From: Chitinophagales bacterium
GTDB lineage: Bacteria > Bacteroidota > Bacteroidia > Chitinophagales > UBA10324
DNA length: 14,793 nucleotides
Assembly (NCBI GenBank): GCA_013695715.1
Contig: JACCZZ010000016.1
Location: forward strand, 1-14,793
Reading direction: 5' to 3'
Both the position numbers and the translations under genes were made by a program. Position 1 is the stretch's first letter. Each line of letters opens with the position of its first letter. Under the pieces are notes generated by a model. It did no database searches and was not told the DNA's origin. It saw nothing but the letters and a program-made list of their open reading frames with translations. Of this stretch, positions 1 through 14,228 are shown one piece after another.

Positions 1-948
1 AACTATGGCAGAACCGTAATCGAGCGACCTGATCATAACACCACTCGAATAGATTTCCCGGTACGGAAGGGTTACTATATCGGAAGCCGCAAAATAATAT
101 GGAATGATTTCATTCGGAACATAGGAGTAATTTAATATGCAGTCTTTACTTAAATTAAGTTCCTTCACAATATTATCAAATTCCTCCTGCTCCACCTTCC
201 AGGGTTTTCCTACAACAAGCAACTTTACATTTGGAAGCCGATTGCGAACTATAGAATGAGCCTTCAGCAACACATCTAATCCCTTAACCTTCTTTATCTG
301 GCCAAAGAACAGTACGAGCTGTTGATCCATAGGAAGATCTAACTTCTTTCGTGCTTCTTCTCTGGTGATTGGCTTATTGAATAAAAAATCAGAATCCCCA
401 TGTGGCACTATGTGAATTTTCTGATCTGGGAAATCTGGAAAATATTTGTTTAATGCCCTTTTTGCATAATCTGAATGCACGATGATCTGATCTATAGAAC
501 GCTGAAATTTCTTATACTTACCGGCATCTATCTCTTTACCATACTTGTCAAAGCTTTCGATATCGTGAATGGTTGCCACTATCTTTATACCCTTTCGGCG
601 AAAAAGAAAGAAGTTCAGATACTCGCGTGCTGCAAAATGATAGACGTGAAAATGCACTACGTCAGCTCCTGATTTTGCCGCGTCATTAGCAGCATTCAAA
701 GCACCTACAGCATAGCGCAAGCCACGAAGCAGAACGGGATCTTTTCCATAAATTTTCTTATAAGGTTTTTTAGTACGGAATGGGAACGAAAACTTTGTGT
801 CAAGGTCGGTCTCATCACAGGTATAAAAAGTAAGCTCTGTACCCTGTTCTGCAACGGCCTTACATAATCCAAAATCATAAAAGTCATTTCCGCTGTGCCC
901 GCCAATAGGTTCTACCATCGCCACCCTAAGTTTTGCATGCTCATTCAT
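1..948 (-). CDS. Family 4 glycosyltransferase (GT-B fold), 3' end cut by window edge
   Basis: This is a retaining GT-B glycosyltransferase that would add a sugar from a nucleotide-sugar donor to the lipid-linked oligosaccharide in the cytoplasm. 316 codons are visible, open to base 1 with no stop, so the C-terminus is missing. The N-terminal acceptor domain starts with a beta strand and a Gly-rich loop (VEPIGGHSGND, residues about 12-22), followed by ADVVHFHVYH and VATIHDIESF. The donor domain begins near HIVPHGDSDF and carries FFGQIKKVKGLDVLL and KLLVVGKPW. It then carries LPYREIYSSGVMIRSLDYG (residues 294-312), which is the donor-binding E-containing segment of GT4 enzymes. The start ATG lies in ATGAATGA, overlapping the stop of the upstream sulfotransferase by 8 bases, which suggests translational coupling. 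The family is clear; donor and acceptor sugars cannot be read from the sequence. Confidence 0.88.
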   Translation of the reverse strand, partial: MNEHAKLRVAMVEPIGGHSGNDFYDFGLCKAVAEQGTELTFYTCDETDLDTKFSFPFRTKKPYKKIYGKDPVLLRGLRYAVGALNAANDAAKSGADVVHFHVYHFAAREYLNFFLFRRKGIKIVATIHDIESFDKYGKEIDAGKYKKFQRSIDQIIVHSDYAKRALNKYFPDFPDQKIHIVPHGDSDFLFNKPITREEARKKLDLPMDQQLVLFFGQIKKVKGLDVLLKAHSIVRNRLPNVKLLVVGKPWKVEQEEFDNIVKELNLSKDCILNYSYVPNEIIPYYFAASDIVTLPYREIYSSGVMIRSLDYGSAIV

Positions 949-1822
949 ACCAGGCACTCAGGTTTTTATTGAGCAGCTTTTCTAGTTCCATAATGTCGGG
1001 TTTAAATATTTCATTCATTCGCTCAACCGTTTTATCGTGCTTCAATGCCTTTTTCTTTCTTGTCAGGAAAAGATTTTTAATAGACTCCACCTTCTCATCA
1101 GGAATAAATTTTCGGGCCAGGGTACGTAAATTTTTTTGGGAGTATATAGCTCTGAAAAAGCTATTTCGCGGAGTAGAATAGGTATTGTATTTACCCTCTA
1201 ATCCAGGAATAAATGTTTTATCAATTTGCAGAAAATCAAAAACATTTAAGATCATCCCTTCGATATTTTCTGAAATCTCGTCATAGATGTAGATACGCAC
1301 GTTATCTCTGCCAAAAGCATCAAAATACCGCTTAACCTGAGTAGAATAAAGTCCTAATTCTACATATTGCTGATACCAGAGATGAGCAAACTTATGCTTG
1401 CATTTTCCGCTGACTATATCCTCAAGAGGAACGTTCACATAACCGAGCTTGTGCTCCATAAAAAAATGTGAAAAGGCACGTTCAATAGGATTGCGTAGGG
1501 ACATAATTATTTTCGCATCCGGAACAAGCTGATGAATTTTTTCAGCTACAGTAGGATAAAATAAGTACGATACACTGGCTTCACCAATTGCTTTATGGTG
1601 GCCATTTGCCTGCTCAAATAGTTTTTTGTATTCTTGAAATGTGCCAACACCTTTTTCTTTATGATACAGATTTTGCCTGATTGTGTCTTCATATGAGAAA
1701 AAATTTGGCTCCTTTATAGGGCTCATATAGACTTCGGGATGCCGCTTCAGATAATAATATAAAGAAGTGGTACCGGCCTTTGGTGCTCCTACAATAAAAA
1801 AGTTTGGTAATTTTTCAGCCAT
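941..1822 (-). CDS. PAPS-dependent sulfotransferase ST6
   Basis: A 293-residue soluble sulfotransferase of the heparan-sulfate-sulfotransferase-like class, transferring sulfate from PAPS to a carbohydrate hydroxyl or amine. The 5'-phosphosulfate loop is VGAPKAGTTSLY (residues 11-22, Lys15). IKEPNFFSYE (36-45) supplies Glu38, which aligns with the catalytic Glu of heparan 3-O-sulfotransferases. GEASVSYL (80-87) follows. The 3'-phosphate site is SLRNPIERAFSHF (108-120, Arg110 and Ser118). GLYSTQVKRY and the C-terminal DIMELEKLLNKNLSAWYE complete the bacterial family pattern. There is no signal peptide or membrane segment, so it acts in the cytoplasm. ATG lies 4 bases after the ST5 stop, and the gene ends inside the GT4 start. 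Its closest relative in the window appears to be ST4 (shared PIKE, RNPIERAFSH and a following GY). Its acceptor is unknown. Confidence 0.93.
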   Translation of the reverse strand: MAEKLPNFFIVGAPKAGTTSLYYYLKRHPEVYMSPIKEPNFFSYEDTIRQNLYHKEKGVGTFQEYKKLFEQANGHHKAIGEASVSYLFYPTVAEKIHQLVPDAKIIMSLRNPIERAFSHFFMEHKLGYVNVPLEDIVSGKCKHKFAHLWYQQYVELGLYSTQVKRYFDAFGRDNVRIYIYDEISENIEGMILNVFDFLQIDKTFIPGLEGKYNTYSTPRNSFFRAIYSQKNLRTLARKFIPDEKVESIKNLFLTRKKKALKHDKTVERMNEIFKPDIMELEKLLNKNLSAWYE

Positions 1823-1826
1823 TAGA

Positions 1827-2750
1827 TTAATTTAACCAGGCCGGAAACTGAGTGATCCCCCTTTTACGAAGGAAGTCAGCCAGGCGTTTATTGTAGGGTA
1901 CGTAAAGTGTTTCCAGGTAATTCCGTTCTTCAATATTCATCTTCTCACGTTTGCTTTCACTCGCATTAATTTTTTTATAGAGATTACGCAAAGTTCGTTT
2001 CAATCCTACATTTTTTCTCCAGAAAGACTCAAATTTTTTATTGACGCCAAGCATTGTACTATGCATCCAACGGTTTTTGTAGCCGATAGTTTGGTTTTCA
2101 ATTTTAAAATCATCTGGTTTGTAGAGGTTAAAATCTAAGCCGAGCCAGTTGCAAAGGTGTTCCATGAAAGCAGGAGTATCTTCTTTAAGGTCTTCAAAGA
2201 ATAACACCTTCAAATTGCTGCCGAAAATTTCAAACCAACACGGCAGGTAATCAATATAAAAACCTTCTTTGATTCCTCTGATGAATAATGCTTCTTCGTC
2301 TTCCCTCATATCATCCATCTCCTCAGTTGCAAGCGTTTGTGATTTTTTGATAAATTCACTAAAAGAAATCTTCTCACCAAGATATGCATTGGCCTTTTTC
2401 CTTTCATAGAAAGAAAATAAACGATCTGACGGATTACGGAAGATGAATAATATTTTTGTTTCAGAACCCAGCTCTTTTTTTATGCGGTGGGCAATTACTT
2501 CTTTTCCATATAAATAGCTGGGGCTCGCTTCAAGTCTATACTTATTATTTATATTACAATGGCTAAAGTACCCTTCGTATTCACTAAGAGGCGGAATCTC
2601 TTTCCCATATTTCAAGGGCATAAAAAAGCCAATCTCCTTAGACGTTGAACCACAGACTTCTGAATGCAGTGACAGATAGGTAAATACAGAGGTTGTTCCT
2701 GCTTTATGAACACCTCCAATGATCAGGTTTGGCAACTTCGAAGAATTCAT
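1827..2750 (-). CDS. PAPS-dependent sulfotransferase ST5, divergent member
   Basis: A 307-residue sulfotransferase and the most divergent of the six. The phosphosulfate loop reads IGGVHKAGTTSVF (residues 11-23, Lys16). SKEIGFF (37-43) keeps the putative catalytic Glu39. LEASPSYLYG (73-82) and FIFRNPSDRLFSFYERKK (102-119; Arg105, Ser113) follow, so the cofactor site is complete. It differs from its neighbours in the middle, with an acidic stretch TEEMDDMREDEEALF near 145-156 and GIKEGFYIDYLPCW where the others have a Y-x-x-QV helix. The C-terminus ends KRGITQFPAWLN rather than RDLSxW. These differences fall in regions expected to shape acceptor binding, so it may modify a different position or sugar. 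ATG lies 5 bases after the Wzy-like gene's stop. Cytoplasmic; acceptor unknown. Confidence 0.9.
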   Translation of the reverse strand: MNSSKLPNLIIGGVHKAGTTSVFTYLSLHSEVCGSTSKEIGFFMPLKYGKEIPPLSEYEGYFSHCNINNKYRLEASPSYLYGKEVIAHRIKKELGSETKILFIFRNPSDRLFSFYERKKANAYLGEKISFSEFIKKSQTLATEEMDDMREDEEALFIRGIKEGFYIDYLPCWFEIFGSNLKVLFFEDLKEDTPAFMEHLCNWLGLDFNLYKPDDFKIENQTIGYKNRWMHSTMLGVNKKFESFWRKNVGLKRTLRNLYKKINASESKREKMNIEERNYLETLYVPYNKRLADFLRKRGITQFPAWLN

Positions 2751-2755
2751 GTTCT

Positions 2756-4117
2756 TTAAGTTAACATCTGATTAGGGTTGTATTTGTAGTTTCGATCGGG
2801 ATGCTTTTGAATATAATAATAAAAATAGTGTATTGCAACAAATGATGATGCAATAGCAATGCCCGGATCGAAGAAGCTTCCTCCGGTAGGAATTCCTCTT
2901 ACAATAAAAAATATGATGAAAAAAAGAATTGCTTGATAAAAATAATCCTTCTTGAATTCCTTGTGAAGCCGGCGGTGGGTTCTGAAAACAAGCCAGTATT
3001 GCGACAATCCGATGAGCAAACCGAGCACTCCGAATTGATACACCACACCCAGCATCCCGATATCAGAAGCGTAAAAATGACCCAGCTCTGCAGTAGGACC
3101 GCCCCGCCAGTCATTATTTATCTTGCCATTTCCAAAAAACCAGCTAAAGGTATGTTTGCCAAAGTATTTAAATGCAATTGCACTCTCTCGAAGGCGGGCA
3201 TCCGCGGAGGCCTCACCGGTTTCCTGACCTGTGAGCACAAGAACAACAGAAGTGTACATGTCTACTATACGATCATTTATATCAGGACGTAATATTTCCA
3301 GCATTCCAACTGTGGTTACAATGATCAGTATAAAGGCCATGGAATAATAAACGATCTTTTCCTTGCTGGTGTAGATTAAAAAATACAAGCCCAAAGTTCC
3401 TAAGAGCGCAACTGATGTCCCCCTTTTTTGGTTGATAAAGAAAATGTAAGCAAAGAAACCAATAAAGAAAAGGGCATATTTTATCTTGTTCGTTCTTGTA
3501 AATCGAATAAAATAGTAGATGGTGGCAAAAGCAAATCCGAAGATGTCGAACTCAAATTGGCACCCACCTTTAGTCGAATTACAATAAACGAATAATGTTC
3601 CCGCGAACTGATTGGGATTGAGGGTAAGCAACATTAGCAAATACCACGGCAGGTTGAACCAGGCCATGAATAAGAGACCATCGCGCAAAATGGTTAAATC
3701 AAGAGCTTTTGTTTTTAACAGGTAAAAGAGGAAAATTCCTGATAAGATGGCAAGCCATGATTTCTCGGCTGACATGCCCAAAAGAATTGGCTGACCAAAA
3801 TAAAAATTGGTTACGAACCCAGCCTGAAGCATGATAAAAGTGAGTAGAACAAAAATGATGACCTCATAAGAGGTGAAGCCTGCATTCTTCACAAAAATCT
3901 TATCAATTACGAAACTAATTGTGAAAAGGAGATAGAAAAACAACATGGGATAACCCCCATACAGCAGGTAGTATAAAGTAAGAGGGCTTTTAATAAGCGT
4001 ACCGAAAATGTTTATAAAAAGGAAATAGACTCCTAAAACCTTAAGGCGTCGTTTCCAGGTATTCTGAATACTGGTAGTTATAATCGGATGTGATGTTAAT
4101 TCAAATCCCTGCTGCAC
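2756..4117 (-). CDS. Polytopic Wzy-like polysaccharide polymerase (or O-antigen ligase family)
   Basis: A 453-residue inner-membrane protein with roughly ten to twelve hydrophobic helices, the first near residues 28-45 after a basic WKRRLK. It resembles O-antigen polymerase/ligase proteins, which join lipid-linked repeat units on the periplasmic face. NQKRGTSVALLG (229-240) matches the small-residue Arg motif ahead of the late helices. A large loop follows, with SADARLRESAIAF (304-316) and WFFGNG (326-331), where this superfamily has its DAR..E and GxG motifs. Polymerase is preferred over ligase because the gene sits in a cluster with a flippase and glycosyltransferases, but the families cannot be separated by eye. 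The start is GTG: the frame has a stop (TAA) 6 bases upstream and there is no early ATG. AGG lies 9 bases before the GTG, and the gene overlaps the GT2 end by 22 bases. Confidence 0.8.
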   Translation of the reverse strand: MQQGFELTSHPIITTSIQNTWKRRLKVLGVYFLFINIFGTLIKSPLTLYYLLYGGYPMLFFYLLFTISFVIDKIFVKNAGFTSYEVIIFVLLTFIMLQAGFVTNFYFGQPILLGMSAEKSWLAILSGIFLFYLLKTKALDLTILRDGLLFMAWFNLPWYLLMLLTLNPNQFAGTLFVYCNSTKGGCQFEFDIFGFAFATIYYFIRFTRTNKIKYALFFIGFFAYIFFINQKRGTSVALLGTLGLYFLIYTSKEKIVYYSMAFILIIVTTVGMLEILRPDINDRIVDMYTSVVLVLTGQETGEASADARLRESAIAFKYFGKHTFSWFFGNGKINNDWRGGPTAELGHFYASDIGMLGVVYQFGVLGLLIGLSQYWLVFRTHRRLHKEFKKDYFYQAILFFIIFFIVRGIPTGGSFFDPGIAIASSFVAIHYFYYYIQKHPDRNYKYNPNQMLT

Positions 4118-5190
4118 GTGCGTTTACCTAAAAGTATTTTAAGGATGAGAACCGATTCTTTTGAATTACCTTCGGTAAGATTTTTAATAGCCTTAAGTGA
4201 GAGGCGGATTACAGGTGCGAAGATAAGGTACGGATAGTAAAGTTGGTAGAACAACATCCAACCGCGGTATTTACAACACATAAAAAAGAGTGGTCTTTGC
4301 TTACTTTTTATCTCTTTGCCGGTGGTTACCCCCTGTTTGTGATATATAACACTCTTATATGCATAGCCGTGTTTCCATCCCTTACGAACCCCCCGCACCT
4401 CCCAATCCATCTCTTCAAAATAGGCATAGTACACATCATTCATCAGTCCTACATCCTCTAAAAATTCCCTTCTTATAAATAACGAAGCACCATACACATA
4501 ATCAAATTTCACATCATCATGATCATACTGGCCTGAGTCTATTTCTTTTAACCCAAGGTGATAAGACCATGTATTCCATTTATTAAACATGCCGCCAACG
4601 GCATTGATTTTTTCCGGCCAGCGATACCATAACAATTTTGAACCTATGATGCCTACCTTTTCATGCCTCTCTTCGTATTCTTTGGCTTTTTCAAGAAGTG
4701 CGTTCAATGCATTATAGTCGAGAGTAGTATCATTGTTTAGGAGCCAGATAAAATCAGCATCGCCGCGTTTCAAGGCATATCTGGCCCCTGTATTATTTCC
4801 ACCGGCAAAGCCAATGTCTGTTCTTGCCTGGATGAATATGAGTGGATGTTTGAAACTATTTGCACCCGATGCAATTTGCTCTTCTGAGGCTATTTCCAGG
4901 TCACGATCACCTCCGGCTTCTGCTTCATCAATTTCATACTTCACATATGCAACAGGCTTGTTACAATAGGGAAATGAAAACTGTTTGATTTCATCAGGCG
5001 GATTAAAATCAATGGTTTGTTTTCCTTCAGCCCAATCCTTTATTATTTGTAATGAGGCCGGCGTATTGTTATCGACAATAATAACTTGAAAATTTGTGGA
5101 TGACTGCTTCGCCAGACTTTCAAGTGTCTCAATGGTATTTGCATGGCCATTGAAGTTGACAAGTACAATATATACTTTAGATGGTTCCAT
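4096..5190 (-). CDS. Family 2 glycosyltransferase (rhamnosyltransferase-like)
   Basis: A 364-residue inverting GT-A enzyme expected to extend the oligosaccharide on the cytoplasmic face. Visible motifs are YIVLVNFNG (residues 7-15), VIIVDNN (36-42, Asp40), IGFAGGNNTGAR (126-137), WLLNNDTTLD (149-158, the metal-binding DxD equivalent), YVYGASLFIRR (231-241) and YFEEMDWEVR (257-266, catalytic-base region). Between Asp40 and the GFAGGNN motif lie about 85 residues, longer than usual, including an acidic patch EIDEAEAGGDRDLEI (86-100). I recall comparable inserts in some GT2 relatives. A longer frame from an ATG at 5268 would overlap ST4 by 34 bases. The ATG at 5190 begins directly at the first beta strand and leaves a 44-base spacer, so it is preferred. 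The C-terminus has an amphipathic, partly hydrophobic region (LFYQLYYPYLIF) that may touch the membrane. Confidence 0.88.
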   Translation of the reverse strand: MEPSKVYIVLVNFNGHANTIETLESLAKQSSTNFQVIIVDNNTPASLQIIKDWAEGKQTIDFNPPDEIKQFSFPYCNKPVAYVKYEIDEAEAGGDRDLEIASEEQIASGANSFKHPLIFIQARTDIGFAGGNNTGARYALKRGDADFIWLLNNDTTLDYNALNALLEKAKEYEERHEKVGIIGSKLLWYRWPEKINAVGGMFNKWNTWSYHLGLKEIDSGQYDHDDVKFDYVYGASLFIRREFLEDVGLMNDVYYAYFEEMDWEVRGVRKGWKHGYAYKSVIYHKQGVTTGKEIKSKQRPLFFMCCKYRGWMLFYQLYYPYLIFAPVIRLSLKAIKNLTEGNSKESVLILKILLGKRTCSRDLN

Positions 5191-5234
5191 AACTTGTCTT
5201 TGTAACCTACTGTTCCAGTTAACTATTTTTCTTA

Positions 5235-6209
5235 TCAGCTCTTTTTTATCTGCGCTTCTGCAACCCATGATGAGAAGTCTCTGTTGATCAATTCGCCGAG
5301 TTTTAATACATCATCATGGAAAATGTCGGCAAGAAATCTTCTTTCTTCTTCTTTAATTTTAGGAAGATTTTTATTTGTGTAAAGAGTTTTTTTAAATTTT
5401 GATTTTATTGATTTCGGAAGCATCCCTTTTAACCAGTCTTTCATTCTTTTTTGTGAATTAAGGCTGCCTATTATCCTATTTTTAGGTATGAAAGAGGGAT
5501 TGAATTTTTGTGAATAATCTATCTCCACATCAGGATTTACATTGAGGAAAGCAAACATATCTTTTACAACAGCACCTGCATCTTTTTTGAAATCATCGAA
5601 GAGGTAAATGCGCCGCTGCCTCTCAGGAAAGATATCAATGAACCGCTTGACCTGTTCATAATACATTCCAATCTCTATGTATAAATTAGATATACCCCAT
5701 CCCTTAGGATTCCGTGCCATATCCTTTTTCAAAGCGGTCATGAAATCGTCTCTCTCATATCCTATGCGCAGGTCCATTAAATAATGACTGAAGGCACGCT
5801 CAATTGGGTTTCGTAACATCATAATCACCTTAGCATTGGGAAACTCGCTGAAAATATTTCTCGCAGCCTCAGTGGAATAGAGGTAAGAATTGGTGATCTC
5901 CCCTATAGCCTTTTCACCATTCACATTTTTAAACAGTTGTTCATACTGGCTTCTTTCTTTTACAAAGGCATGAAAAATTCCCTCCTTCATATCTGTTTCC
6001 AAAAAAGAAGATAAATCTTTGTTCAGCGATCTTGAATAATTAGGGCGAAATTTTGTGTTGTCTATATCAGTCGAAAAATGGTGTGTTTCTTTTATAGGTG
6101 CCATATAAATCTGAGGATGCATCTTCATGTATTCATACAATGAGGTTGTTCCGGACTTAGCAGCACCTACAACAAAAAAATTCGGAAGCTTCTCTTTATT
6201 TATTTCCAT
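5235..6209 (-). CDS. PAPS-dependent sulfotransferase ST4
   Basis: A 324-residue cytoplasmic sulfotransferase. The phosphosulfate loop is VGAAKSGTTSLY (residues 14-25, Lys18). IKETHHFSTD (39-48) carries the putative catalytic Glu41. IGEITNSYLY is at 102-111, and MLRNPIERAFSHY (131-143; Arg133, Ser141) binds the 3'-phosphate. Between residues 50 and 90 it has about 25 more residues than its relatives (NYSRSLNKDLSSFLETDMKE region), which probably forms an extra loop near the acceptor side. The family C-terminus DVLKLGELINRDFSSW is followed by a short tail, AEAQIKKS. The frame could open at a TTG at 6233, but the ATG at 6209 places the start just before LPNFFVVG, as in the paralogues. It is separated from ST3 by 83 bases without an obvious promoter. 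It resembles ST6 most closely. Confidence 0.92.
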   Translation of the reverse strand: MEINKEKLPNFFVVGAAKSGTTSLYEYMKMHPQIYMAPIKETHHFSTDIDNTKFRPNYSRSLNKDLSSFLETDMKEGIFHAFVKERSQYEQLFKNVNGEKAIGEITNSYLYSTEAARNIFSEFPNAKVIMMLRNPIERAFSHYLMDLRIGYERDDFMTALKKDMARNPKGWGISNLYIEIGMYYEQVKRFIDIFPERQRRIYLFDDFKKDAGAVVKDMFAFLNVNPDVEIDYSQKFNPSFIPKNRIIGSLNSQKRMKDWLKGMLPKSIKSKFKKTLYTNKNLPKIKEEERRFLADIFHDDVLKLGELINRDFSSWVAEAQIKKS

Positions 6210-6292
6210 CAATGTAAATCTTCTTTTCTTCAATCATCAATTAAGCGGTTGAAATCTCAAATTATTCTTGACGAAACGTCTTGCTGCAGTCA

Positions 6293-7219
6293 TTAATTAA
6301 TCCAGCCCGTAAGATCTCTTTTTATTACATCCTGCAACAGAAGAATATCTTCTGTATATATTTTTTTTAAGGTCGCTCTTGTTTCAGCATTCATCTCTTT
6401 TTTCTCAAGATTATATTTGTATACAGTGCTTTGAACTTTTAAACGCATCCTCTTGCGCACATCTTTAGGCACTAATTTACCCATGAATTTCTTAAAGGCA
6501 TTTGGCTTTTTTAGAAAGCTGTTTATCGCTTCTACTTTAGATTTTCCACTCACATTCAGTGCATCCCCAAAATCCAATGGTATTTCGTCAATCTTTAAAT
6601 ATTCCTCCAGTGAACGCACCACTTCTCTTGGATCATTACGCAGGTCTTCGTTCAAATAAATTTTAACATTTTGAAAATTGTTAAGAAACGCTTTTACCTG
6701 TTGATAATAAAAGCCACGTTGTATATATTGAAAATCGAAATGATGGTTGGCCGCTTTTCTTTGTTCTTCCGCTTCAATGGCATCTTCAAAACCCAGAGTT
6801 TCCGCAGCATCACGCAATTTGTGCATGTATTGTGAGAACGCACGATCTACAGGGTTGCGCAATACAATTACTATATTCACATTAGATGCATCAGGGTGAA
6901 TGCGATGAATATTCGAGATTGTTTTTTCATAAAAATAGAGATACGTTGTAGATGATTCGCCTCTGATTTTTCGGCTCTTCCCTTCTTCGAATAAGGCTAA
7001 ATAATCATCCAGCCGATTTACAAGAAAGCGAGGCTTTGTTACGAGCTTCCCGTGGTTGATGAATGAGAGGTCTTCTTCAGGCCATGTAAAATATCCGGGT
7101 TCCTTCTTCCTGCTCATAAATACCTGAGGATGCTGATCGAGCGCGTAATGCAATGTAGTGGTACCGCCTTTTGCAGCTCCTACAATGAAGAGATTTGGCC
7201 AGAAGAGGGTTGATGACAT
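6293..7219 (-). CDS. PAPS-dependent sulfotransferase ST3
   Basis: A 308-residue sulfotransferase with an intact cofactor site: IVGAAKGGTTTLH (residues 12-24, Lys17), KKEPGYFTW (38-46, Glu40), RGESSTTYLYFYE (86-98) and VLRNPVDRAFSQY (119-131; Arg121, Ser129). YIQRGFYYQQVKAF and the C-terminal DILLLQDVIKRDLTGWIN complete the pattern. The segment from residue 48 to 70 (LSFINHGKLVTKPRFLVNRLDD) is longer than in ST1 and may line the acceptor cleft. It shares RGFYxQQV, the preceding F-x-Y-I-x-R-G context and an IEAE helix with ST2 directly upstream, which suggests that the two arose by tandem duplication. There are 67 bases between the ST2 stop and this ATG, without a convincing promoter. It is expected to be cytoplasmic, and its acceptor is unknown. 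Confidence 0.92.
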   Translation of the reverse strand: MSSTLFWPNLFIVGAAKGGTTTLHYALDQHPQVFMSRKKEPGYFTWPEEDLSFINHGKLVTKPRFLVNRLDDYLALFEEGKSRKIRGESSTTYLYFYEKTISNIHRIHPDASNVNIVIVLRNPVDRAFSQYMHKLRDAAETLGFEDAIEAEEQRKAANHHFDFQYIQRGFYYQQVKAFLNNFQNVKIYLNEDLRNDPREVVRSLEEYLKIDEIPLDFGDALNVSGKSKVEAINSFLKKPNAFKKFMGKLVPKDVRKRMRLKVQSTVYKYNLEKKEMNAETRATLKKIYTEDILLLQDVIKRDLTGWIN

Positions 7220-7286
7220 TTCTTATTTACTTACCAATATATCTGTAAAGGTAATGGCAGATAGAGGTACTGCAATCTTGACCTAA

Positions 7287-8183
7287 TCATGAGGTGGATA
7301 ATACATTAGAATACCAGGTGCTTAAATCACGATGTATGATTTTTTCCAGTTGCTGAATGTCGGTAATAAAGTAATTATCTAGCAGCTCCTGCTCACGCTT
7401 TTTATCCAATTTTGAGTTCACAACGGCTACAGCATTTTTTCTTGAAATGAATTTTTGCATAGAACGCTTCCATTCAGGCGGTAACAACGATCCAATAATG
7501 TTACGTAAAGGATTCTTTTTCCTAGTTAACTGATGAACAGCTTTGATTTTAGGTAAAGCTGCTTCATTACTTCTTATGTCAAGATTAAGTTCTGCTCTTT
7601 TAACACTGAGAAAATCCTGTAAACGATTGAAGGTTTCTTTCCTGTTTTTTATCAGGTCTTCTTCAAAAAGCAGAAAGAGCATTTGATCATCAGTGAAAAA
7701 ATTTTTAAATCGCAGCACCTGTTGAGAATAAAAGCCCCGGCTGATATAGCTGTAATTAAATTTTTGCGCAGTTTTCTTCTCAAGCCGCTCTGTCTCCGCT
7801 TCAATTGCTTTTTCAAAAGGCAAATCTTCAAAACCTTTTCTCTGCGACATCAGAAAATGGGAATAGGCTCGCTCTGCAGGATTGCGTAAAATGAAAATGA
7901 GCTTCACCTCCTTTCCAAGACTTTCATAGATCCGCTGTGCAGCTTTCTCCTCAAACATAATGGCAGGGTCAACTTCACCGATGGCTTTTTGCCCATTCCA
8001 ACCACTAAAAAATTGGTTTTCATAGAAGCTTAATCCTCGCGCATACTTTTCCTCATAAACAAAAAATTTAGTCTCCTTCACCTTTTCAGGCAGGTAGATT
8101 TCCGGATGTTGTTTCAGAATTTCGTAGAGAGTAGTAGTTCCTGCTTTTTGCGCTCCTACGCAGAGAAAATTGGGTAACGCCAT
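7287..8183 (-). CDS. PAPS-dependent sulfotransferase ST2
   Basis: A 298-residue sulfotransferase. The phosphosulfate loop is VGAQKAGTTTLYE (residues 9-21, Lys13). VKETKFFVYEE (35-45) holds the putative catalytic Glu37. IGEVDPAIMF (68-77) stands where the others have GE(A/S)S-x-x-YL, a real local difference. FILRNPAERAYSHF (97-110; Arg100, Ser108) is the 3'-phosphate site. YISRGFYSQQVLRF and DIQQLEKIIHRDLSTWY follow. A longer frame begins at a GTG (8273), but its 30 extra residues are low-complexity and would run through a TACATTTG promoter-like element. The ATG at 8183 gives MALPNFLCVG, aligned with the starts of the sister genes. It follows the flippase gene after 127 bases, the longest gap inside the sulfotransferase block, so a new transcript may begin here. 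Confidence 0.92.
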   Translation of the reverse strand: MALPNFLCVGAQKAGTTTLYEILKQHPEIYLPEKVKETKFFVYEEKYARGLSFYENQFFSGWNGQKAIGEVDPAIMFEEKAAQRIYESLGKEVKLIFILRNPAERAYSHFLMSQRKGFEDLPFEKAIEAETERLEKKTAQKFNYSYISRGFYSQQVLRFKNFFTDDQMLFLLFEEDLIKNRKETFNRLQDFLSVKRAELNLDIRSNEAALPKIKAVHQLTRKKNPLRNIIGSLLPPEWKRSMQKFISRKNAVAVVNSKLDKKREQELLDNYFITDIQQLEKIIHRDLSTWYSNVLSTS

Positions 8184-8212
8184 CAGCACTATTCTTTTTT
8201 GTTCACGCGTTG

Positions 8213-8220
8213 CAAATGTA
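8213..8220 (-). promoter_or_regulatory. Possible -7 promoter element before ST2
   Basis: Read on the minus strand this is TACATTTG, an exact fit to the Bacteroidota -7 consensus TAnnTTTG, preceded by a run of T. It lies 29 bases before the ST2 ATG, leaving a leader of about 20 bases. No TTG is visible at the expected -33 position, so it may be fortuitous. It would let ST2 and the genes after it be transcribed apart from the flippase. Confidence 0.3.
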
Positions 8221-8293
8221 AAAAAAAAGAGTTTGGATTTTGCTTTCTGATAAGCAATTAAGCTGAAGTACACTTATGCATCAGAACACTATA

Positions 8294-8305
8294 GTCTAAT
8301 TAGAC
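8294..8305. repeat. Perfect 12-base palindrome between flippase gene and ST2
   Basis: GTCTAATTAGAC reads the same on both strands and begins 5 bases after the flippase stop codon. It could be a protein-binding dyad or form a weak 4-bp hairpin with an AATT loop. It has no U-rich tail that would make it a terminator. A 12-base palindrome can occur by chance in AT-rich spacer DNA, so a function is only a suggestion. Confidence 0.3.
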
Positions 8306-8310
8306 AATTA

Positions 8311-9768
8311 TTATTCAATATTTGAAATCTGATCTTCAATGGTGTCGGAATTATCTTTTTTCTTTTTCTTTTCAGGTTTCAATGCCTTCTTTAGCTCACT
8401 GAGGAAAGTACGCGGGTTGATATTAAACATATCTTTAAAATCAAGGGTGTAAAAGCCATAATATTTCTTTATAAGGATGAATGGAACTGCATTCATCAGC
8501 AATACGCCGAAAGCATTTACACATGCTGCCCCTACTGCACCATACCTGGGAATAAGCCACAGATCGAGCACTACCGCCAAAATAGTGGCTGCAACCATTA
8601 GGTTGCGATTGAGCTTTTGCTTACCAGTCATGATTAATACACTATTTACAGGCCCGGTAGCTGCATTGATAAACTGACCCACAGCAAGAATGATGAGAGA
8701 AATGCTACCACTGAGAAATTCTTTCCCAAATAGGCCCATAATGAACGGTGCGCCCAAGATTACTATAATAAGAATAGGTGCAGAACACCAAAAGATGATT
8801 TTAGTTACAAACTGCGCTGATTTTCTTAATTCATCCATTTTTCCTTCAGCAAAAAGCTCAGCAAACCTTGGCGCTGCCGGTATCAGCAGCGCTATCAATG
8901 CAATACGTGTGATGGTTGCTACTTTAAATGCATTGCGGTAAACACCTACATCCTCAATTGTGGCATAACGCCCAAGGATAAAGGTATCAGCATAACCTCT
9001 GATGAGAGAGGCAAAAGCAGCAACAAAAAGAGATATCCCTATCCAGAATTTCTCCCTGAAATTGATGCCTGCTTCTGACTGTGTTGAAAGATAATTTGAA
9101 TATTTGAGCCACCAATAAACACTCAGCACACTTGTAAGGGTTATATAAGCAACATAAGTGATTACTGGAACATAGAGATCACGCCGGCTGGTGAATAATA
9201 TGATGCTTCCAAGAATGAGGATGCCAAATATGAAATTACTTACATTATGAAGAAAGGTATACTGTTTTATTTTCTTAAGGCCTCTTATGCCACCGGTGCT
9301 GATTTGGAAAACTGTGAGAGGCAATAATGCCAAAGCGGCTATTCTGAAATAAGGGAAAAGCTCAGGTTTTTTAAATACATCACCTGCGATCTCTTCTGCA
9401 AAAAAATAGATTATGGTAGAAACCAACAAGCTTAATGGAACAGAGACAAGCATAGACTTATTATACAAGTCTTTAATCCACCCCATCTTTCTCTGCGCCT
9501 TATATTGTGCACCAAAACGGGTCATAAGGGTATCTGATCCCAGCTTTGAGATGCTATTGCTGAAATTCATCAGCGATTGGCAAAGGTTATAGATGCCAGT
9601 TCCGGCCGCGCCAGTGCTTCGGGCAAGCATTAAAGCGAAGAGCCAGTTTAGTCCCATTCCGATCAGCCGGGTGCTGAATGCTGAAATACCCCCACTAACC
9701 AATTCCTTATGATCTCCAGAATCCTTTTGCTCAGATTTATCCAGTACTTCTTCGTTAATGTTTTTCAT
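8311..9768 (-). CDS. Wzx-type polysaccharide flippase (MOP/MATE superfamily)
   Basis: A 485-residue inner-membrane protein with about twelve to fourteen hydrophobic helices, expected to move the undecaprenyl-linked repeat unit from the inner to the outer leaflet. After a charged cytoplasmic N-terminus the first helices carry SGGISAFSTRLIGMGLNW (residues about 25-42), GTGIYNLCQSLMNF and RFGAQYKAQ. Mid-protein GGIRGLKKIKQYTFLHNVSN and GRYATIEDVGVYRNAFKVA, and late LIILAVGQFINAATGPVNSVLIMTG, are typical of polysaccharide-synthesis MOP exporters. The C-terminus ends in a lysine cluster (KPEKKKKKD) and an acidic tail, both predicted cytoplasmic. The length is normal for Wzx. It begins 8 bases after the ST1 stop, so the two are co-transcribed. 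A flippase serving the same locus as the Wzy-like gene is the simplest reading; its substrate is not visible in the sequence. Confidence 0.87.
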   Translation of the reverse strand: MKNINEEVLDKSEQKDSGDHKELVSGGISAFSTRLIGMGLNWLFALMLARSTGAAGTGIYNLCQSLMNFSNSISKLGSDTLMTRFGAQYKAQRKMGWIKDLYNKSMLVSVPLSLLVSTIIYFFAEEIAGDVFKKPELFPYFRIAALALLPLTVFQISTGGIRGLKKIKQYTFLHNVSNFIFGILILGSIILFTSRRDLYVPVITYVAYITLTSVLSVYWWLKYSNYLSTQSEAGINFREKFWIGISLFVAAFASLIRGYADTFILGRYATIEDVGVYRNAFKVATITRIALIALLIPAAPRFAELFAEGKMDELRKSAQFVTKIIFWCSAPILIIVILGAPFIMGLFGKEFLSGSISLIILAVGQFINAATGPVNSVLIMTGKQKLNRNLMVAATILAVVLDLWLIPRYGAVGAACVNAFGVLLMNAVPFILIKKYYGFYTLDFKDMFNINPRTFLSELKKALKPEKKKKKDNSDTIEDQISNIE

Positions 9769-9776
9769 CGCATCAG

Positions 9777-10655
9777 TTAATGCAACCAGCTACTTAAATC
9801 TTTCGCGGTAAGTATAGATAATTTCTCTATATCAGTTCTGAAATATTCAATCAGGTTTCTTCTTGTATCTTCATTGATAGGCTCGGTCTTCTCCATAAAA
9901 TTCTTTGTGAAAAATTGGTTGGTACGCACACCCTTTCTTTTTTGAAACCACAGCTTATATATTTTTTTCAAAGGATTATTAGTCATAAACAGATAGCGCA
10001 ATACTGGATTTTTCCACTTCTTTCCTCCCTCGTTCCAGCGCTTGTTGTAATCAATTGCTGCTTTTTCATCAATACCAAGAAAATGAAATATGCCTTTTAT
10101 GGTGCCGGGCACATCTTTAATGAACTCGTCGTACCAGATGATGTGCACATTTTTAAAATGTTCTTTATAAGCCTGAACAGCATCGGCATATAAGCCCATC
10201 TTTTTATATTGCATGAAGAGTGAAGCATTTGTATTGAAGCGCTCATCTTCTTTCTGAAGCGCTTTCTCAAATGAATATTTTTCTTCCGGATTATTTACGC
10301 GCACGAAATTAAAGGCAGAATAAGCTCTGTCAACGGGGTTACGCAGGATCATCATGATCTTTACATCATCTCCTAGATACTTTTTTATATTATTGATTGC
10401 CTCCTTATAGAAGAACAAATACATCACGCTTGCTTCACCAATAACTTTTTTACCTTCTGATCCTTCAAACAATTGAAAATATTTATCTTCATCCTCCACA
10501 CATTTTTGAATTCTGTTCTTAACTGCATCTGCCACAAAAAACTGCGGCTCTTTCAGCTTTGGCATAAATACATCCGGATGCTGAATCATATAGTTATACA
10601 ATGACCGTGTTGCAGATTTGCCAGCACCAATTAATAAAAAATTAGGCAGAGGCAT
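9777..10655 (-). CDS. PAPS-dependent sulfotransferase ST1 with Thr-Arg phosphosulfate loop
   Basis: A 292-residue sulfotransferase. The phosphosulfate loop reads IGAGKSATRSLY (residues 9-20): Lys13 and Thr16 are kept, but the usual GTTS is replaced by ATRS. The same Thr-Arg pairing occurs in heparan sulfate 3-O-sulfotransferases (KGGTR), so the site is probably functional. KLKEPQFFVAD (33-43, Glu36), IGEASVMYLFFYKE (72-85) and MILRNPVDRAYSAF (102-115; Arg105, Ser113) follow. YKKMGLYADAVQAY and DIEKLSILTAKDLSSWLH complete the fold. An upstream AAAGGA lies 6 bases before the ATG, one of the clearest ribosome-binding sites in this window. It follows the SGNH-like gene after 55 bases and precedes the flippase gene by 8. 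It is the only sulfotransferase placed between the acylation pair and the flippase. Confidence 0.91.
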   Translation of the reverse strand: MPLPNFLLIGAGKSATRSLYNYMIQHPDVFMPKLKEPQFFVADAVKNRIQKCVEDEDKYFQLFEGSEGKKVIGEASVMYLFFYKEAINNIKKYLGDDVKIMMILRNPVDRAYSAFNFVRVNNPEEKYSFEKALQKEDERFNTNASLFMQYKKMGLYADAVQAYKEHFKNVHIIWYDEFIKDVPGTIKGIFHFLGIDEKAAIDYNKRWNEGGKKWKNPVLRYLFMTNNPLKKIYKLWFQKRKGVRTNQFFTKNFMEKTEPINEDTRRNLIEYFRTDIEKLSILTAKDLSSWLH

Positions 10656-10710: not shown

Positions 10711-11820
10711 TTATTTCAGAACTGCAACTGTTGGAGTGAAAAACGTTTTCTTTATATCACTTGCAAGACGGGAGGTAAATAAATTTGCTCCATCCTTATT
10801 CATGTGATTATCGAAAAAATAACTAAGGTGATTGTAGCTCATATCCTGGCTGTAATCTTTGAAAGGGACATTGTATCTCTTACATACATTTATAATGGCT
10901 TCGTATGACGGCTCCATGCTAAAAGGTGCCAATGCAGGCGACATGGTTACATAAACTTTGGTTCCTTTTGATGTTAGATTCGAAAGCATTTCTTCCAGCC
11001 CCTGTATTTTGTTGTTGTCTACTACTTTTCCTTCTTGATTTCGAAGCTCAGCATTTTCACGAATCAACTCCTGTGCTTTCTGTTCTGTAATTACTCCTTT
11101 AAGAGGCTTAAAGCCCGATTCAGACTTTCTATTTTTGTAGATGCCTGCCATAATATCAAGGATTGATGAATTAAACCGATAGATTTTGGAAGACATCTTA
11201 ACTTTTTCATAATTCACAGGCAGAGACCATTCTTCCATAGCACCATGAGTCATCCAGAAATTCTGAGCTGCTTCAGAAGAGGGATATACAACTACTCCAT
11301 CAGACTTATTTCGGTCGCGAATACCTTTAAGCAAATAAATGTCTCTCACTTCCGATTCATCACCATAATATGGAGCCAGCACATTCAGCCTGTCATAATG
11401 TATATCCTTATAGTACATCTCCTCCGGATTCAAATCAATAATTACCAGTTGAGGAGTATAGCGGCTCAGCGCCATTCGAATTATTGCCTGCTCGTAGAAG
11501 ATTGTTTGTCCATCATGACCCGCATTGTAACAGCTAATCTTCAATGAGTCGGCTATGATATTTGGATTATAATTTCGTCGGCCGCGAGAGGAGCCAAGTA
11601 TTATTGCATCCTCATTCATCTTTGTAAATGTGAATGTAGTCTCAGCACCGGGACCAGCCTTTTGTTTAAAGTATAAGTAGTGTATCATTTCTCCAATCAG
11701 CTGATCAAATAAAATCAACGTTGCAAGAAAAAGCAGCCCGTTACGAAGGAGCTTCCACTTGCCATTAGACTGAACCTTTGTTTCCGTTTTAGAATTGGAA
11801 ATAGATAAACTGACTTGCAT
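10711..11820 (-). CDS. Membrane-anchored SGNH-hydrolase-like partner of the MBOAT acyltransferase
   Basis: A 369-residue protein with a basic, Ser/Thr-rich N-terminus, one transmembrane helix at about residues 27-44 (GLLFLATLILFDQLIG) and a large domain that should face the periplasm. AIILGSSRGRRNYNP (72-86) fits the SGNH block I with Ser77 as the candidate nucleophile. YNAGHDGQTIFYE (98-110) fits the oxyanion region, and VIIDLNPEE follows. FFDNHMNKDGANLF near the C-terminus offers Asp337 and His339, spaced D-x-H rather than the usual D-x-x-H. Such AlgX/AlgJ- or DltD-like proteins accompany MBOAT proteins and finish transfer of acyl groups to exported glycans. The ATG at 11820 is chosen over an upstream TTG (11832). 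It overlaps the MBOAT gene by 32 bases, so the products are probably translated together. It could also be a hydrolase that removes groups. Confidence 0.75.
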   Translation of the reverse strand: MQVSLSISNSKTETKVQSNGKWKLLRNGLLFLATLILFDQLIGEMIHYLYFKQKAGPGAETTFTFTKMNEDAIILGSSRGRRNYNPNIIADSLKISCYNAGHDGQTIFYEQAIIRMALSRYTPQLVIIDLNPEEMYYKDIHYDRLNVLAPYYGDESEVRDIYLLKGIRDRNKSDGVVVYPSSEAAQNFWMTHGAMEEWSLPVNYEKVKMSSKIYRFNSSILDIMAGIYKNRKSESGFKPLKGVITEQKAQELIRENAELRNQEGKVVDNNKIQGLEEMLSNLTSKGTKVYVTMSPALAPFSMEPSYEAIINVCKRYNVPFKDYSQDMSYNHLSYFFDNHMNKDGANLFTSRLASDIKKTFFTPTVAVLK

Positions 11821-13231
11821 CAAAAACACCAATTAGTAAAATGATTGAAATTACTCCTGCATAAAAAAGATACCTGAGCACATTATTACGAGGTTCAGGA
11901 AAAATAGCATTCTTATCTTTTGTATATTCTTCCTGGTAGATCTCTACTGAAAATAAGCACACGATTCCGAACAAGCCATACCACATGGTAGATTGATCGC
12001 CATCATAAAACTTTAAACTCTTAAAACTGAACATCTGGCTGTAATAATATAGTGCATCCTGCACGCTCATCGAACGGAAAAATATATAAGAGAAGATGCC
12101 GCAGTGAAAGGCAAGGATGGTTCCAACGATTCTTCCGAATAAGGGATGAATGCCGTATACAACTTTATCAAACTTTTCGATCTGCTTTTTCATCACCAGA
12201 CGTGACGCAAGAAAAATAAAAAAGAGAAGAAAGCATAGTACATAAGTCCAGTTTGCGCCATGCCATAGTCCAGCAAGAAACATCAGCACTCCAAGATTGA
12301 AAATACCTCTCCACTTTCCTTTTCTATAACCGCCCAATGGCTTAAAAACATAATCACCAAACCAGGTGGTGAGTGAGATGTGCCATCGCTGCCACACTTC
12401 ACCTACCGAGCGACCGAGGTAAGGCCTTCTGAAATTTGTCATCAGATTAAAACCCATAATACGGGCTGAGCCAATTGCCATGTCGCTGTAACCGCCAAAG
12501 TCGCAATAAAGTTGAATGGCAAAAAACCACGCCGACACCCAGAAGGTCAGTGGTTCGCCGCTGTGCTGATGTGGAAAGTTGAAAACATTGGCGACGTAAG
12601 CTCCAAGCCGATCAGCAATCACCACCTTTTTAAACAACCCCCACAGCATAAGTTTTAGTCCGGAGATCACCCTGTCATAATCGAATTCATGCTTTTGATA
12701 GAACTGCGGAATCAGGTTCTGCGGCCGCTCAATTGGCCCTGCCACCAACTGCGGATAAAACATTACATAAAGGGAATAGATGCCGAAGTCACGAACGGGC
12801 TTAAAGTTTCCACGATAGACCTCTATCGTATAGCTCATGGCCTGAAAAGTATGAAACGATAATCCGATGGGGAGAATGATGTTTAAATATGGAATATCCA
12901 TACTTACTCCAAACAGGTCTGTAACCCAGTTTAGATTACCAAGAAAGAAGTTGTAATATTTGAAAACAGCAAGTACTCCTATGTTGGCAGCCAGACTCAA
13001 TAAAAGAAATGCCTTCCTTCGCCTTCCCTGAGCCTGATCAATCATTATTCCGGCGAAATAATCAATGATGATGGTGAAAATGAGTATTAGAATATAAATT
13101 GGAATAAAAAACATGTAGAAGATGCAACTGCTGATTAACAGATGCACCCACCTGAATCTATGGGGAAGAAGAAAATAGATGAGGGTAACGAGCGGGAAAA
13201 ATAATAAGAAGCTAAATGAATTAAATACCAT
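11789..13231 (-). CDS. MBOAT family O-acyltransferase (AlgI-like)
   Basis: A 480-residue inner-membrane protein of the AlgI/DltB/PatA type, which passes an acyl group, usually acetyl from acetyl-CoA, across the membrane to an exported polysaccharide. Hydrophobic helices run through most of its length. Signature segments are LPIGLSFHTFQAMSYTIEVY (residues 120-139), PQLVAGPIERP (160-170), YCDFGGYSDMAIGSARIMG (242-260) and EVWQRWHISLTTWF (278-291, His284). GLWHGANWTYV (321-331) carries His324, the invariant His of the family. The end, ASQFIYFQF, is also typical. The length matches AlgI. The start ATG is preceded by a 50-base leader with two inverted repeats and a TACATTTG element. It overlaps the SGNH-like gene downstream. 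The acyl group and the acceptor sugar are not determined by the sequence. Confidence 0.93.
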   Translation of the reverse strand: MVFNSFSFLLFFPLVTLIYFLLPHRFRWVHLLISSCIFYMFFIPIYILILIFTIIIDYFAGIMIDQAQGRRRKAFLLLSLAANIGVLAVFKYYNFFLGNLNWVTDLFGVSMDIPYLNIILPIGLSFHTFQAMSYTIEVYRGNFKPVRDFGIYSLYVMFYPQLVAGPIERPQNLIPQFYQKHEFDYDRVISGLKLMLWGLFKKVVIADRLGAYVANVFNFPHQHSGEPLTFWVSAWFFAIQLYCDFGGYSDMAIGSARIMGFNLMTNFRRPYLGRSVGEVWQRWHISLTTWFGDYVFKPLGGYRKGKWRGIFNLGVLMFLAGLWHGANWTYVLCFLLFFIFLASRLVMKKQIEKFDKVVYGIHPLFGRIVGTILAFHCGIFSYIFFRSMSVQDALYYYSQMFSFKSLKFYDGDQSTMWYGLFGIVCLFSVEIYQEEYTKDKNAIFPEPRNNVLRYLFYAGVISIILLIGVFDASQFIYFQF

Positions 13232-13448: not shown

Positions 13449-14228
13449 TTATGCAAATTCCGCGATGAAATAAGGGTTTAAGAGGTTTTCCTTATTGTAT
13501 TCGAGACGCTTGTTGGTTTCCCAATTCAACACCCTTCCACCTGCAAGTTCAATTACTGCCTGACCGGCAGCAGTGTCCCATTCCATGGTAGGACCAAATC
13601 GAGGATATACGTCGGCTTTTCCTTCAGCTACCAGGCAAAATTTCAGAGAACTTCCTGAAGAAACAAATTCAACTTCCCTACCCTCTTTTTTCAAATCTTC
13701 CACAAACTCAAGGGTATCATCATTCAAATGTGAACGGCTTGCAACCACGTTTACTTTTTGAAGATGACGCCAGTTCTCCCCTTTCTTCAATGGTATCTTT
13801 GTACCATCTCCATTCATCTTAAAGCTGCCTTCTCCTTTAATGCCATACCAGATTAATTTTTGAGCCGGAGCATAAACTACTCCGAGTATAGGCCTATCAT
13901 GTGACATGAGAGCGATATTGACAGTGAACTCCCCATTTTTTTTGATGAATTCCTTAGTGCCATCTAAGGGATCTACCAGCCAATACATCTTCCAGTTCTT
14001 ACGGTCTTCATAAGGTATCAGCTTCGTTTCCTCAGAAATTACGGGTATATCGGGATACAGTTCTTTTAAGGAAGCCACAATAATGTTATTAGATTTTTGG
14101 TCGGCAAGTGTAAGCGGAGAATTGTCGCCCTTCAATTCTACTGTAAAATCCTGATCATAAACCACCATAATTTCTTTTCCTGCATCTACAGCAATTTCTA
14201 TTATTTCTTCTATATCAAAGTCTTTCAT
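13449..14228 (-). CDS. cysQ: 3'(2'),5'-bisphosphate nucleotidase CysQ
   Basis: A 259-residue cytoplasmic Mg-dependent phosphatase of the inositol-monophosphatase superfamily. It removes the 3'-phosphate from PAP (and PAPS), giving AMP. PAP is the inhibitory by-product of every PAPS-dependent sulfotransferase reaction. Key residues are visible: PLTLADQ (38-44, Asp43), VISEE (63-67), WLVDPLDGTKEFI (83-95; Asp86 and Asp89 bind metal), GSSLKFC (192-198) and PTMEWDTAAGQAV (213-225, Asp218). The DPLDGTKEFI form and GSSLKFC separate CysQ from plain inositol monophosphatases. The length is typical. The frame could be read from a TTG at 14288, but that triplet is the -33 box of a good promoter, so the ATG at 14228 is the start. 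It stands at the head of the sulfotransferase locus, in the same direction, 217 bases before the MBOAT gene. Confidence 0.93.
   Translation of the reverse strand: MKDFDIEEIIEIAVDAGKEIMVVYDQDFTVELKGDNSPLTLADQKSNNIIVASLKELYPDIPVISEETKLIPYEDRKNWKMYWLVDPLDGTKEFIKKNGEFTVNIALMSHDRPILGVVYAPAQKLIWYGIKGEGSFKMNGDGTKIPLKKGENWRHLQKVNVVASRSHLNDDTLEFVEDLKKEGREVEFVSSGSSLKFCLVAEGKADVYPRFGPTMEWDTAAGQAVIELAGGRVLNWETNKRLEYNKENLLNPYFIAEFA

What the first reader, a model, noticed from the sequence alone, without database searches (positions are those of the whole stretch)
941..10655. Six distinct PAPS sulfotransferases interleaved with a Wzx/Wzy-type polysaccharide locus
Six separate 292-324-residue genes each keep a phosphosulfate loop, a KE-x-x-F catalytic-Glu segment and an RNPxxRxxS 3'-phosphate site. 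They are interleaved with a flippase, a Wzy-like protein and two glycosyltransferases on one strand with gaps of a few to 127 bases. Established knowledge: this class sulfates carbohydrates using cytosolic PAPS. Inference: the locus makes a heavily sulfated exopolysaccharide or capsule in a Bacteroidota bacterium, sulfated before flipping, functionally like a bacterial counterpart of glycosaminoglycans. Six in one locus is far more than I would expect for a single repeat unit.
Basis: partly seen in the sequence, partly recalled or inferred. Interest (0 to 1): 0.85.

Follow-up and report, generated by a model that had tools for sequence, protein, structure and literature searches.

The report
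Six-sulfotransferase locus for a sulfated polysaccharide
Some bacteria of one Bacteroidota family carry a conserved gene set with six different sulfate-adding enzymes but few sugar-adding ones, which probably builds a densely sulfated coat or matrix polymer somewhat like the sulfated sugars of animal tissues.

Summary
Six diverged PAPS sulfotransferases (24-35% identical to ST1), a Wzx flippase, a Wzy-like protein and one glycosyltransferase lie on one strand at 941-10655; a second glycosyltransferase (1-957) lies mostly outside. The window also holds CysQ, which removes the PAP by-product, and a probable MBOAT/SGNH O-acetylation pair. The host is a Chitinophagales MAG. The same order, with an orthologue of each sulfotransferase, is in 7 of 16 held genomes of its family (window included), partly in an eighth; the other eight have two or three in or near the locus. 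A 90-sequence tree gives six supported clades; relatives of ST1, ST3, ST4 and ST5 also occur in loci of other families. Each ST is under purifying selection (dN/dS 0.04-0.11). A profile of the six resembles heparan-sulfate sulfotransferases more than cytosolic SULTs. Flanks in four relatives encode polymer export and a TviB-like nucleotide-sugar dehydrogenase. Best reading: a Wzx/Wzy polymer on a short repeat, sulfated in the cytosol before flipping, O-acetylated after. The kind is known (synechan: two STs, eight GTs); six STs to two GTs in Bacteroidota is new as far as my searches show. Polymer chemistry, positions sulfated and a glycosaminoglycan-type backbone are inferred only.

The parts
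13449..14228 (-). CysQ, 3'(2'),5'-bisphosphate nucleotidase (clears PAP)
   Evidence: TIGR01331 299.7 bits, cut-off 228.8; same place in G003, G004, G006, G076, G118
11789..13231 (-). MBOAT O-acyltransferase, AlgI/DltB type
   Evidence: PF03062 86.6 bits, cut-off 27; DltB model 128.3 under its cut-off 375
10711..11820 (-). SGNH-hydrolase-like protein with one hydrophobic segment, probable O-acetyltransferase partner of MBOAT
   Evidence: Lipase_GDSL_2 23.1 bits, below cut-off 32.9; S76/S77 and D336-N337-H338 invariant in 12 of 12; 4 of 12 match Lipase_GDSL_2 and 1 of 12 ALGX at E 0.01; hydrophobic segment 23-41
9777..10655 (-). Sulfotransferase ST6
   Evidence: PF00685 55.8 bits; own clade 100/99
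8311..9768 (-). Wzx-type flippase
   Evidence: PF01943 71.3 bits, cut-off 28.2
7287..8183 (-). Sulfotransferase ST5
   Evidence: PF00685 69.2 bits; clade 100/99 with f13 members
6293..7219 (-). Sulfotransferase ST4
   Evidence: PF13469 51.4, PF00685 46.5 bits; clade 100/98 with f13 members
5235..6209 (-). Sulfotransferase ST3
   Evidence: PF13469 54.6, PF00685 46.0 bits; a homologue at E 1e-10 or better in 16 of 16 genomes of the family
4096..5268 (-). GT2 glycosyltransferase
   Evidence: PF00535 49 bits, cut-off 23.3
2756..4117 (-). Wzy-like polymerase (O-antigen ligase/polymerase superfamily, weak)
   Evidence: PF04932 24.5 bits, below cut-off 31.7; profile of 17 homologues hits ligase 7tpg at E 0.013
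1827..2750 (-). Sulfotransferase ST2 (most diverged)
   Evidence: PF00685 41 bits; clade 100/100 on a long branch
941..1822 (-). Sulfotransferase ST1
   Evidence: PF13469 53.5, PF00685 49.2 bits; clade 99/98 reaching a family outside the order
1..957 (-). GT4 glycosyltransferase, cut by the contig end
   Evidence: PF13439 56.4, PF00534 50.2 bits

Best explanation
The locus makes a sulfated, O-acetylated surface or matrix polysaccharide by the Wzx/Wzy route. A priming sugar-phosphate transferase coded elsewhere, then GT2 and GT4, build a short lipid-linked repeat in the cytosol. Six cytosolic PAPS sulfotransferases, each probably with its own sugar and position, sulfate that repeat (or its growing precursor); CysQ hydrolyses the PAP by-product and so relieves inhibition. 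Wzx flips the sulfated repeat, Wzy polymerises it, MBOAT/SGNH adds acetyl groups in the periplasm, and a Wza/Wzz/CpsB-type export set (next door in four relatives) sends the chain out as EPS or capsule. Shown by calls: gene content, order, conservation, selection, catalytic residues, no strong hydrophobic segment in the STs. Inferred: substrate, one ST per position, all six on the same polymer, repeat length, capsule rather than O-antigen, O-acetylation.
For: Pfam/NCBIfam assignments. Same gene order with an orthologue of each ST in other MAGs. Six supported ST clades in a 90-row tree. dN/dS 0.036-0.107 for the STs against 0.034-0.107 for Wzx, Wzy, GT2, GT4 and SGNH, G000 against G001, dS 0.9-1.9. 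Of 90 aligned STs: K (84) or R (5) at the PAPS-loop lysine, one gap; E38 in 89, one gap; R110 in 89, K in one; S118 in 87, A in three. Profile hits 3rnl (1.9e-78), NDST1 (8.1e-28), HS3ST (1.3e-21), above the best SULT (1.4e-6). Flanks: Poly_export/SLBB, CpsB/CapC, RmlB, TviB-like and TviC-like enzymes, in 4 of 5 six-ST genomes whose upstream DNA I held. Relatives have Sat beside CysC, so can make PAPS. Priming PF02397 transferase in 5 of 5 genomes searched, own included.
Against: No polymer, acceptor or expression data. No APS kinase or ATP sulfurylase was found in the window's own MAG; the MAG is 75% complete and the two genes are neighbours in relatives, so one gap could explain both. CysD was absent in 5 of 5; relatives have Sat instead. 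Wzy and SGNH assignments are below curated cut-offs. In G118 the export set is not upstream. Eight of 16 family members do with two or three STs in or near the locus, so six are not needed for every version of the polymer. More glycosyltransferases may sit elsewhere, so the repeat may be longer than three sugars.
Confidence: 0.85

Rival explanations
1. The product is a sulfated O-antigen of lipopolysaccharide, not an exported EPS or capsule: the repeat is polymerised and then ligated to lipid A-core.
For: The Wzy-like protein resembles the O-antigen ligase/polymerase superfamily; Wzx/Wzy also builds O-antigens (established knowledge). In G118 no exporter is upstream of CysQ.
Against: G003, G004, G006 and G076 carry a Poly_export/SLBB exporter, a Wzz-like protein and a CpsB/CapC phosphatase directly upstream of CysQ, the set expected for EPS/capsule.
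Confidence: 0.12
2. Only some of the six STs act on this polymer; others sulfate a different glycan or lipid and sit here for co-regulation, or are redundant.
For: Eight of 16 family members have only two or three STs in or near the locus; in synechan one of two ST mutants (xssE) was little altered in EPS amount or blooms.
Against: All six keep position and order in seven genomes and are under purifying selection like the polymer genes; the paralogues are 24-35% identical to ST1, so recent redundancy is excluded.
Confidence: 0.3
3. The proteins sulfate small molecules or lipids (Nod-factor-like or sulfolipid type), and the polysaccharide genes are chance neighbours.
For: Some bacterial sulfotransferases act on lipo-oligosaccharides of rhizobia or on mycobacterial molecules (Maeda et al., passages).
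Against: Interleaving with Wzx, Wzy-like, GT2 and GT4 is conserved over the family and, in part, in other families inside and outside the order; closest solved animal enzymes are heparan-sulfate sulfotransferases.
Confidence: 0.03

Closest known systems
Synechan xss cluster, Synechocystis PCC 6803 (PMC8205485, passages read)
   Same: Wzx/Wzy polysaccharide cluster with sulfotransferases; a sulfated EPS shown chemically
   Different: Two STs and eight GTs (2 sulfates per 8 sugars) against six STs and two GTs here; on a cyanobacterial megaplasmid; the passages name no CysQ or MBOAT/SGNH
Sulfated CPS clusters of Vibrio KMM 8419 (PMC11641403, passages) and Cobetia marina KMM 1449 (PMC11766843, passages)
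   Same: STs with PAPS genes (the Cobetia passages name CysQ) in a polysaccharide region; the Vibrio polymer is also O-acetylated; structures solved as sulfated disaccharides
   Different: ABC-transporter route; three STs in a Vibrio region of 80 genes (Cobetia number not seen in the passages); one sulfate per repeat in both
Pontiella sulfatireligans F21 putative sulfated GAG-like cluster (PMC7356697, passages)
   Same: GAG-type ST in an EPS cluster; sulfated exopolymer detected by dye
   Different: One ST in the cluster (three in the genome), eight GTs, another phylum
Actinoplanes wps-1 cluster (PMC13390465, passages)
   Same: Wzx/Wzy cluster with STs, one with a heparan-sulfate-ST domain, and a glycoside hydrolase, as in some relatives here
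   Different: Two STs; actinomycete; product not chemically verified
Heparan-sulfate sulfotransferases NDST1 and HS3ST (solved structures)
   Same: Sequence profile, PAPS loop, alignment of the KE segment
   Different: Golgi enzymes acting on finished chains (recalled); here probably cytosolic, before flipping; acceptor unknown

Membership tests
PAPS-dependent sulfotransferase (PF00685/PF13469) | Profile score over curated cut-off | tested here: met
   6 of 6 over the PF00685 cut-off
PAPS-dependent sulfotransferase (PF00685/PF13469) | 5'-phosphosulfate loop Lys, catalytic-type Glu, 3'-phosphate Arg/Ser | tested here: met
   All present in 6 of 6 window STs; the roles are recalled from NDST/HS3ST knowledge
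Heparan-sulfate-type (NDST/HS3ST-like) sulfotransferase | Closer in sequence to NDST/HS3ST than to SULTs | tested here: met
   8.1e-28 and 1.3e-21 against 1.4e-6 for the best SULT, profile of the six
Heparan-sulfate-type (NDST/HS3ST-like) sulfotransferase | Transfers sulfate to a HexNAc/uronic-acid chain | not testable with these tools
   Needs biochemistry
Wzx/Wzy-dependent polysaccharide locus | Wzx flippase | tested here: met
   PF01943 71.3 bits
Wzx/Wzy-dependent polysaccharide locus | Wzy polymerase | tested here: inconclusive
   Wzy_C under cut-off; 6 of 17 homologues match at E 0.01; 7tpg E 0.013
Wzx/Wzy-dependent polysaccharide locus | Outer-membrane exporter and co-polymerase nearby | tested here: inconclusive
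   Upstream in G003, G004, G006, G076, not in G118; the window's contig ends before that place; the Wzz-like match is weak (BexC/CtrB 25.9 bits under 437.5)
Wzx/Wzy-dependent polysaccharide locus | Priming sugar-phosphate transferase in the genome | tested here: met
   PF02397 in 5 of 5 genomes, own included
Sulfated glycosaminoglycan | Repeating uronic acid/hexosamine backbone | not testable with these tools
   TviB-like dehydrogenase beside the locus in relatives is only a hint (TviB 440 bits under its 592)
Sulfated polysaccharide cluster | PAPS synthesis in the genome | tested here: inconclusive
   CysC in 4 of 5 and Sat in 6 of 7 genomes, the missing one both times being the own 75% MAG

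The most novel reading that the evidence does not exclude
Bacteria of this Bacteroidota family make a polymer with heparin-like charge density: six (seven with the downstream Sulfotransfer_3-type enzyme of relatives) position-specific sulfotransferases acting on a repeat of about three sugars in the cytosol, so that the whole sulfation pattern is written on each repeat before polymerisation. This would give a uniform sulfation code, unlike the heterogeneous post-polymerisation pattern of animal glycosaminoglycans.
Probability: 0.35. Interest if true: 0.8.

Novelty: new variant of a known kind. Interest (0 to 1): 0.6.

Why it matters
The synechan paper says that among bacteria sulfated polysaccharides are made exclusively by cyanobacteria, and for sulfated GAG-like material in granular sludge the producers and pathways are described as unclear (passages). 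A family-wide locus in Chitinophagales, with related loci in other Bacteroidota, gives genes to test. If each of six STs has its own position, it is also a toolbox of heparan-type enzymes for making defined sulfated glycans.

Tried and rejected
Recent tandem duplication of one ST: rejected, since orthologues of the six-ST group are 53-90% identical to the window's while paralogues are mostly 24-40%, and each class is its own clade. Decay of some copies: not seen in the window (dN/dS 0.036-0.107); the ST4 value rests on a 202-codon fragment, dS is high (0.9-1.9), and values against G006 are saturated and were not used. CysD-type ATP sulfurylase: none in 5 of 5. Own-genome PAPS genes: none. The 533-aa GH-like protein of a relative gave no PDB hit singly; a 7-sequence profile gave weak GH51-type arabinofuranosidase hits (1.1e-4). 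Single Wzy and SGNH searches of the PDB gave nothing; the SGNH profile gave only an unrelated-looking hit at E 0.08. Structure prediction never ran. Paper searches: in the listings and abstract openings I saw no Bacteroidota Wzx/Wzy sulfation locus; the library holds open-licence papers only. Tree rows: 99 ORFs matched the ST profile at E 1e-6 and 9 were dropped (under 230 aa or under 100 bits): two G001 ST4 pieces, G002 ST5 and two ST4 pieces, three G343 proteins, one G395 protein. The tree program warns that long branches (ST2 and ST6 among them) may be misplaced; ST3-labelled proteins of G094 and a second pair in G322/G395 fall outside the ST3 clade.
Full report
What is there. The window is the whole of contig C210 of a MAG (1.9 Mb, 411 contigs, 74.9% complete). 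It is placed in Chitinophagales because the four named near relatives are Chitinophagales MAGs. The genes named here are all on the minus strand. In reading order: CysQ, MBOAT, SGNH-like, ST6, Wzx, ST5, ST4, ST3, GT2, Wzy-like, ST2, ST1, GT4 (cut). The six STs pass the PF00685 cut-off with 40-69 bits. They are 24-35% identical to ST1. From GT4 to ST6 genes overlap or lie 4-127 bases apart, as in an operon; the gap MBOAT-CysQ is 217 bases.

It is conserved. A scan of genome contigs with Wzx found four loci, in four Chitinophagales MAGs; the STs present there have their own orthologues in the same order (two of the contigs are short). By contig number and coordinates these four are G124, G135, G040 and G027, elsewhere called G001, G002, G003 and G004. 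Wzx at E 1e-60 is in 16 of 298 genomes of the order, 15 of them in the window's family. ST3 homologues at E 1e-10 are in 16 of 16 held genomes of that family, 8 genera. Six STs in the same order are in 7 of these 16 (G000, G124, G006, G027, G040, G076, G118; in G124 the locus is split over two contigs and seen only from SGNH to GT4). G135 has ST6, ST5, ST4 and ST3, with breaks in ST5 and ST4, and then the contig ends. The six g3 genomes keep two STs in the locus; in five of them an ST3 homologue lies elsewhere. G130 has three STs over two contigs and G094 two. So six is the rich form, not the family rule.

Six old classes. A tree of 90 STs (9 of 99 matches dropped) gives one supported clade round each window ST: ST2 100/100, ST6 100/99, ST4 100/98, ST5 100/99, ST1 99/98, ST3 97/91. 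ST4 and ST5 clades take in another family of the order (f13). ST1 takes in a family outside the order (f43), and ST3 both f13 and f43. ST2 and ST6 were seen only in the six-ST group and, for ST6, G135. Some ST3-labelled proteins (G094; a second pair in f43) fall outside the ST3 clade. This argues for distinct, long-kept roles. Between G000 and G001 dN/dS is 0.058, 0.107, 0.061, 0.056, 0.101, 0.036 for ST1-ST6, against 0.034-0.107 for Wzx, Wzy, GT2, GT4 and SGNH (dS 0.9-1.9, ST4 on 202 codons).

What the enzymes are. A profile of the six finds a bacterial sulfotransferase (3rnl, 1.9e-78), then NDST1 (8.1e-28) and HS3ST (1.3e-21), well above cytosolic SULTs (1.4e-6 at best). In that alignment the KE segment falls on the E-E-I-Q-F-F segment of NDST1; that this Glu is the catalytic base is recalled. 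The Glu is present in 89 of 90 STs, the last row having a gap there. None of the six has a strong hydrophobic segment by a simple Kyte-Doolittle scan, so they are most likely cytosolic and act before Wzx.

Surroundings. In G003 the genes upstream of CysQ encode a CpsB/CapC phosphatase, a weakly Wzz-like protein, a Poly_export/SLBB protein, a TviC-like epimerase, RmlB, a TviB-like nucleotide-sugar dehydrogenase (TIGR03026 over cut-off; TviB 440 bits under its 592), a NeuD-like acetyltransferase and a UXS-like enzyme (UXS, NeuD and TviC names are from below-cut-off matches or my reading). The same set is upstream in G003, G004, G006 and G076, not in G118: 4 of 5 six-ST genomes whose upstream I held. 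No further glycosyltransferase was recognised among the genes scanned in G003 from 10417 to 37478. A GDP-mannose-dehydratase-type enzyme follows GT4, and a seventh, Sulfotransfer_3, protein lies downstream. Relatives have Sat next to CysC. The own MAG shows neither.

Rarity. In 119 genomes of the class searched with PF00685, 56 have a match over the cut-off. Of the 150 printed of 170 matches, the largest runs within 15 kb are six (the window) and four (G322, G395, G370, G343). In six f13 genomes the largest runs are four (by eye). In 298 genomes of the order 175 have a match over the cut-off, but that match list was cut, so I draw no run statistic from it.

Comparison. Synechan has two STs and eight GTs with sulfate 2 per 8 sugars. 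In the passages I read, Pontiella has one ST in its cluster and three in the genome, Vibrio three in an 80-gene region, Actinoplanes two; the Cobetia number I did not see. Shark Bay MAG work reported no sulfotransferase by PF13469 queries in its Bacteroidetes MAGs (passages). The kind is known; the ST-to-GT ratio, the six old classes and the host group set this one apart.

What stays open. No chemistry. Six STs need not mean six sulfates. The GAG likeness rests on enzyme homology and a dehydrogenase in relatives. Capsule, free EPS and O-antigen are not finally separated.

Noticed in passing
L046 6066-7667 (G087), L048, L050, L055, L059 14988-16553, L078 7222-8676, L079 8055-9497: A glycoside-hydrolase-like protein with a signal- or lipoprotein-like start (invariant RxPxG, GxE and TEWN in 7 of 7) sits inside related sulfation loci that do not have the six-ST form; the two scanned meet no Pfam glycosidase family, and a profile gives weak GH51-type hits.
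   Followed up: partly
L008 (G000:C73 1950-2858); L062; L065: A second Wzx-like plus ST pair in G000, G118 and G006 whose ST has Met and Ala in place of the 3'-phosphate Arg and Ser in all three.
   Followed up: no
L033 425-1429; also L035, L037, L041/L039, L043, L045, L046: A seventh sulfotransferase (Sulfotransfer_3 in G003, the others by similarity to it) lies downstream of the locus in G001, G003, G004, G006, G076, G118 and G087.
   Followed up: partly
L076, L077, L081 (family f13): Related loci with four STs and a Wzy-like gene in another family of the order; L076 and L077 also show Wza-, MBOAT- and Wzx-like genes.
   Followed up: partly
L010 6195-7776: ST5 and ST4 of G002/G135 are split by stops or frame breaks, real or assembly error.
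   Followed up: no
L080 (G343 C42 111463-120591): Five weak ST7-like proteins (20-25% identity) around an MBOAT in another family of the class.
   Followed up: no
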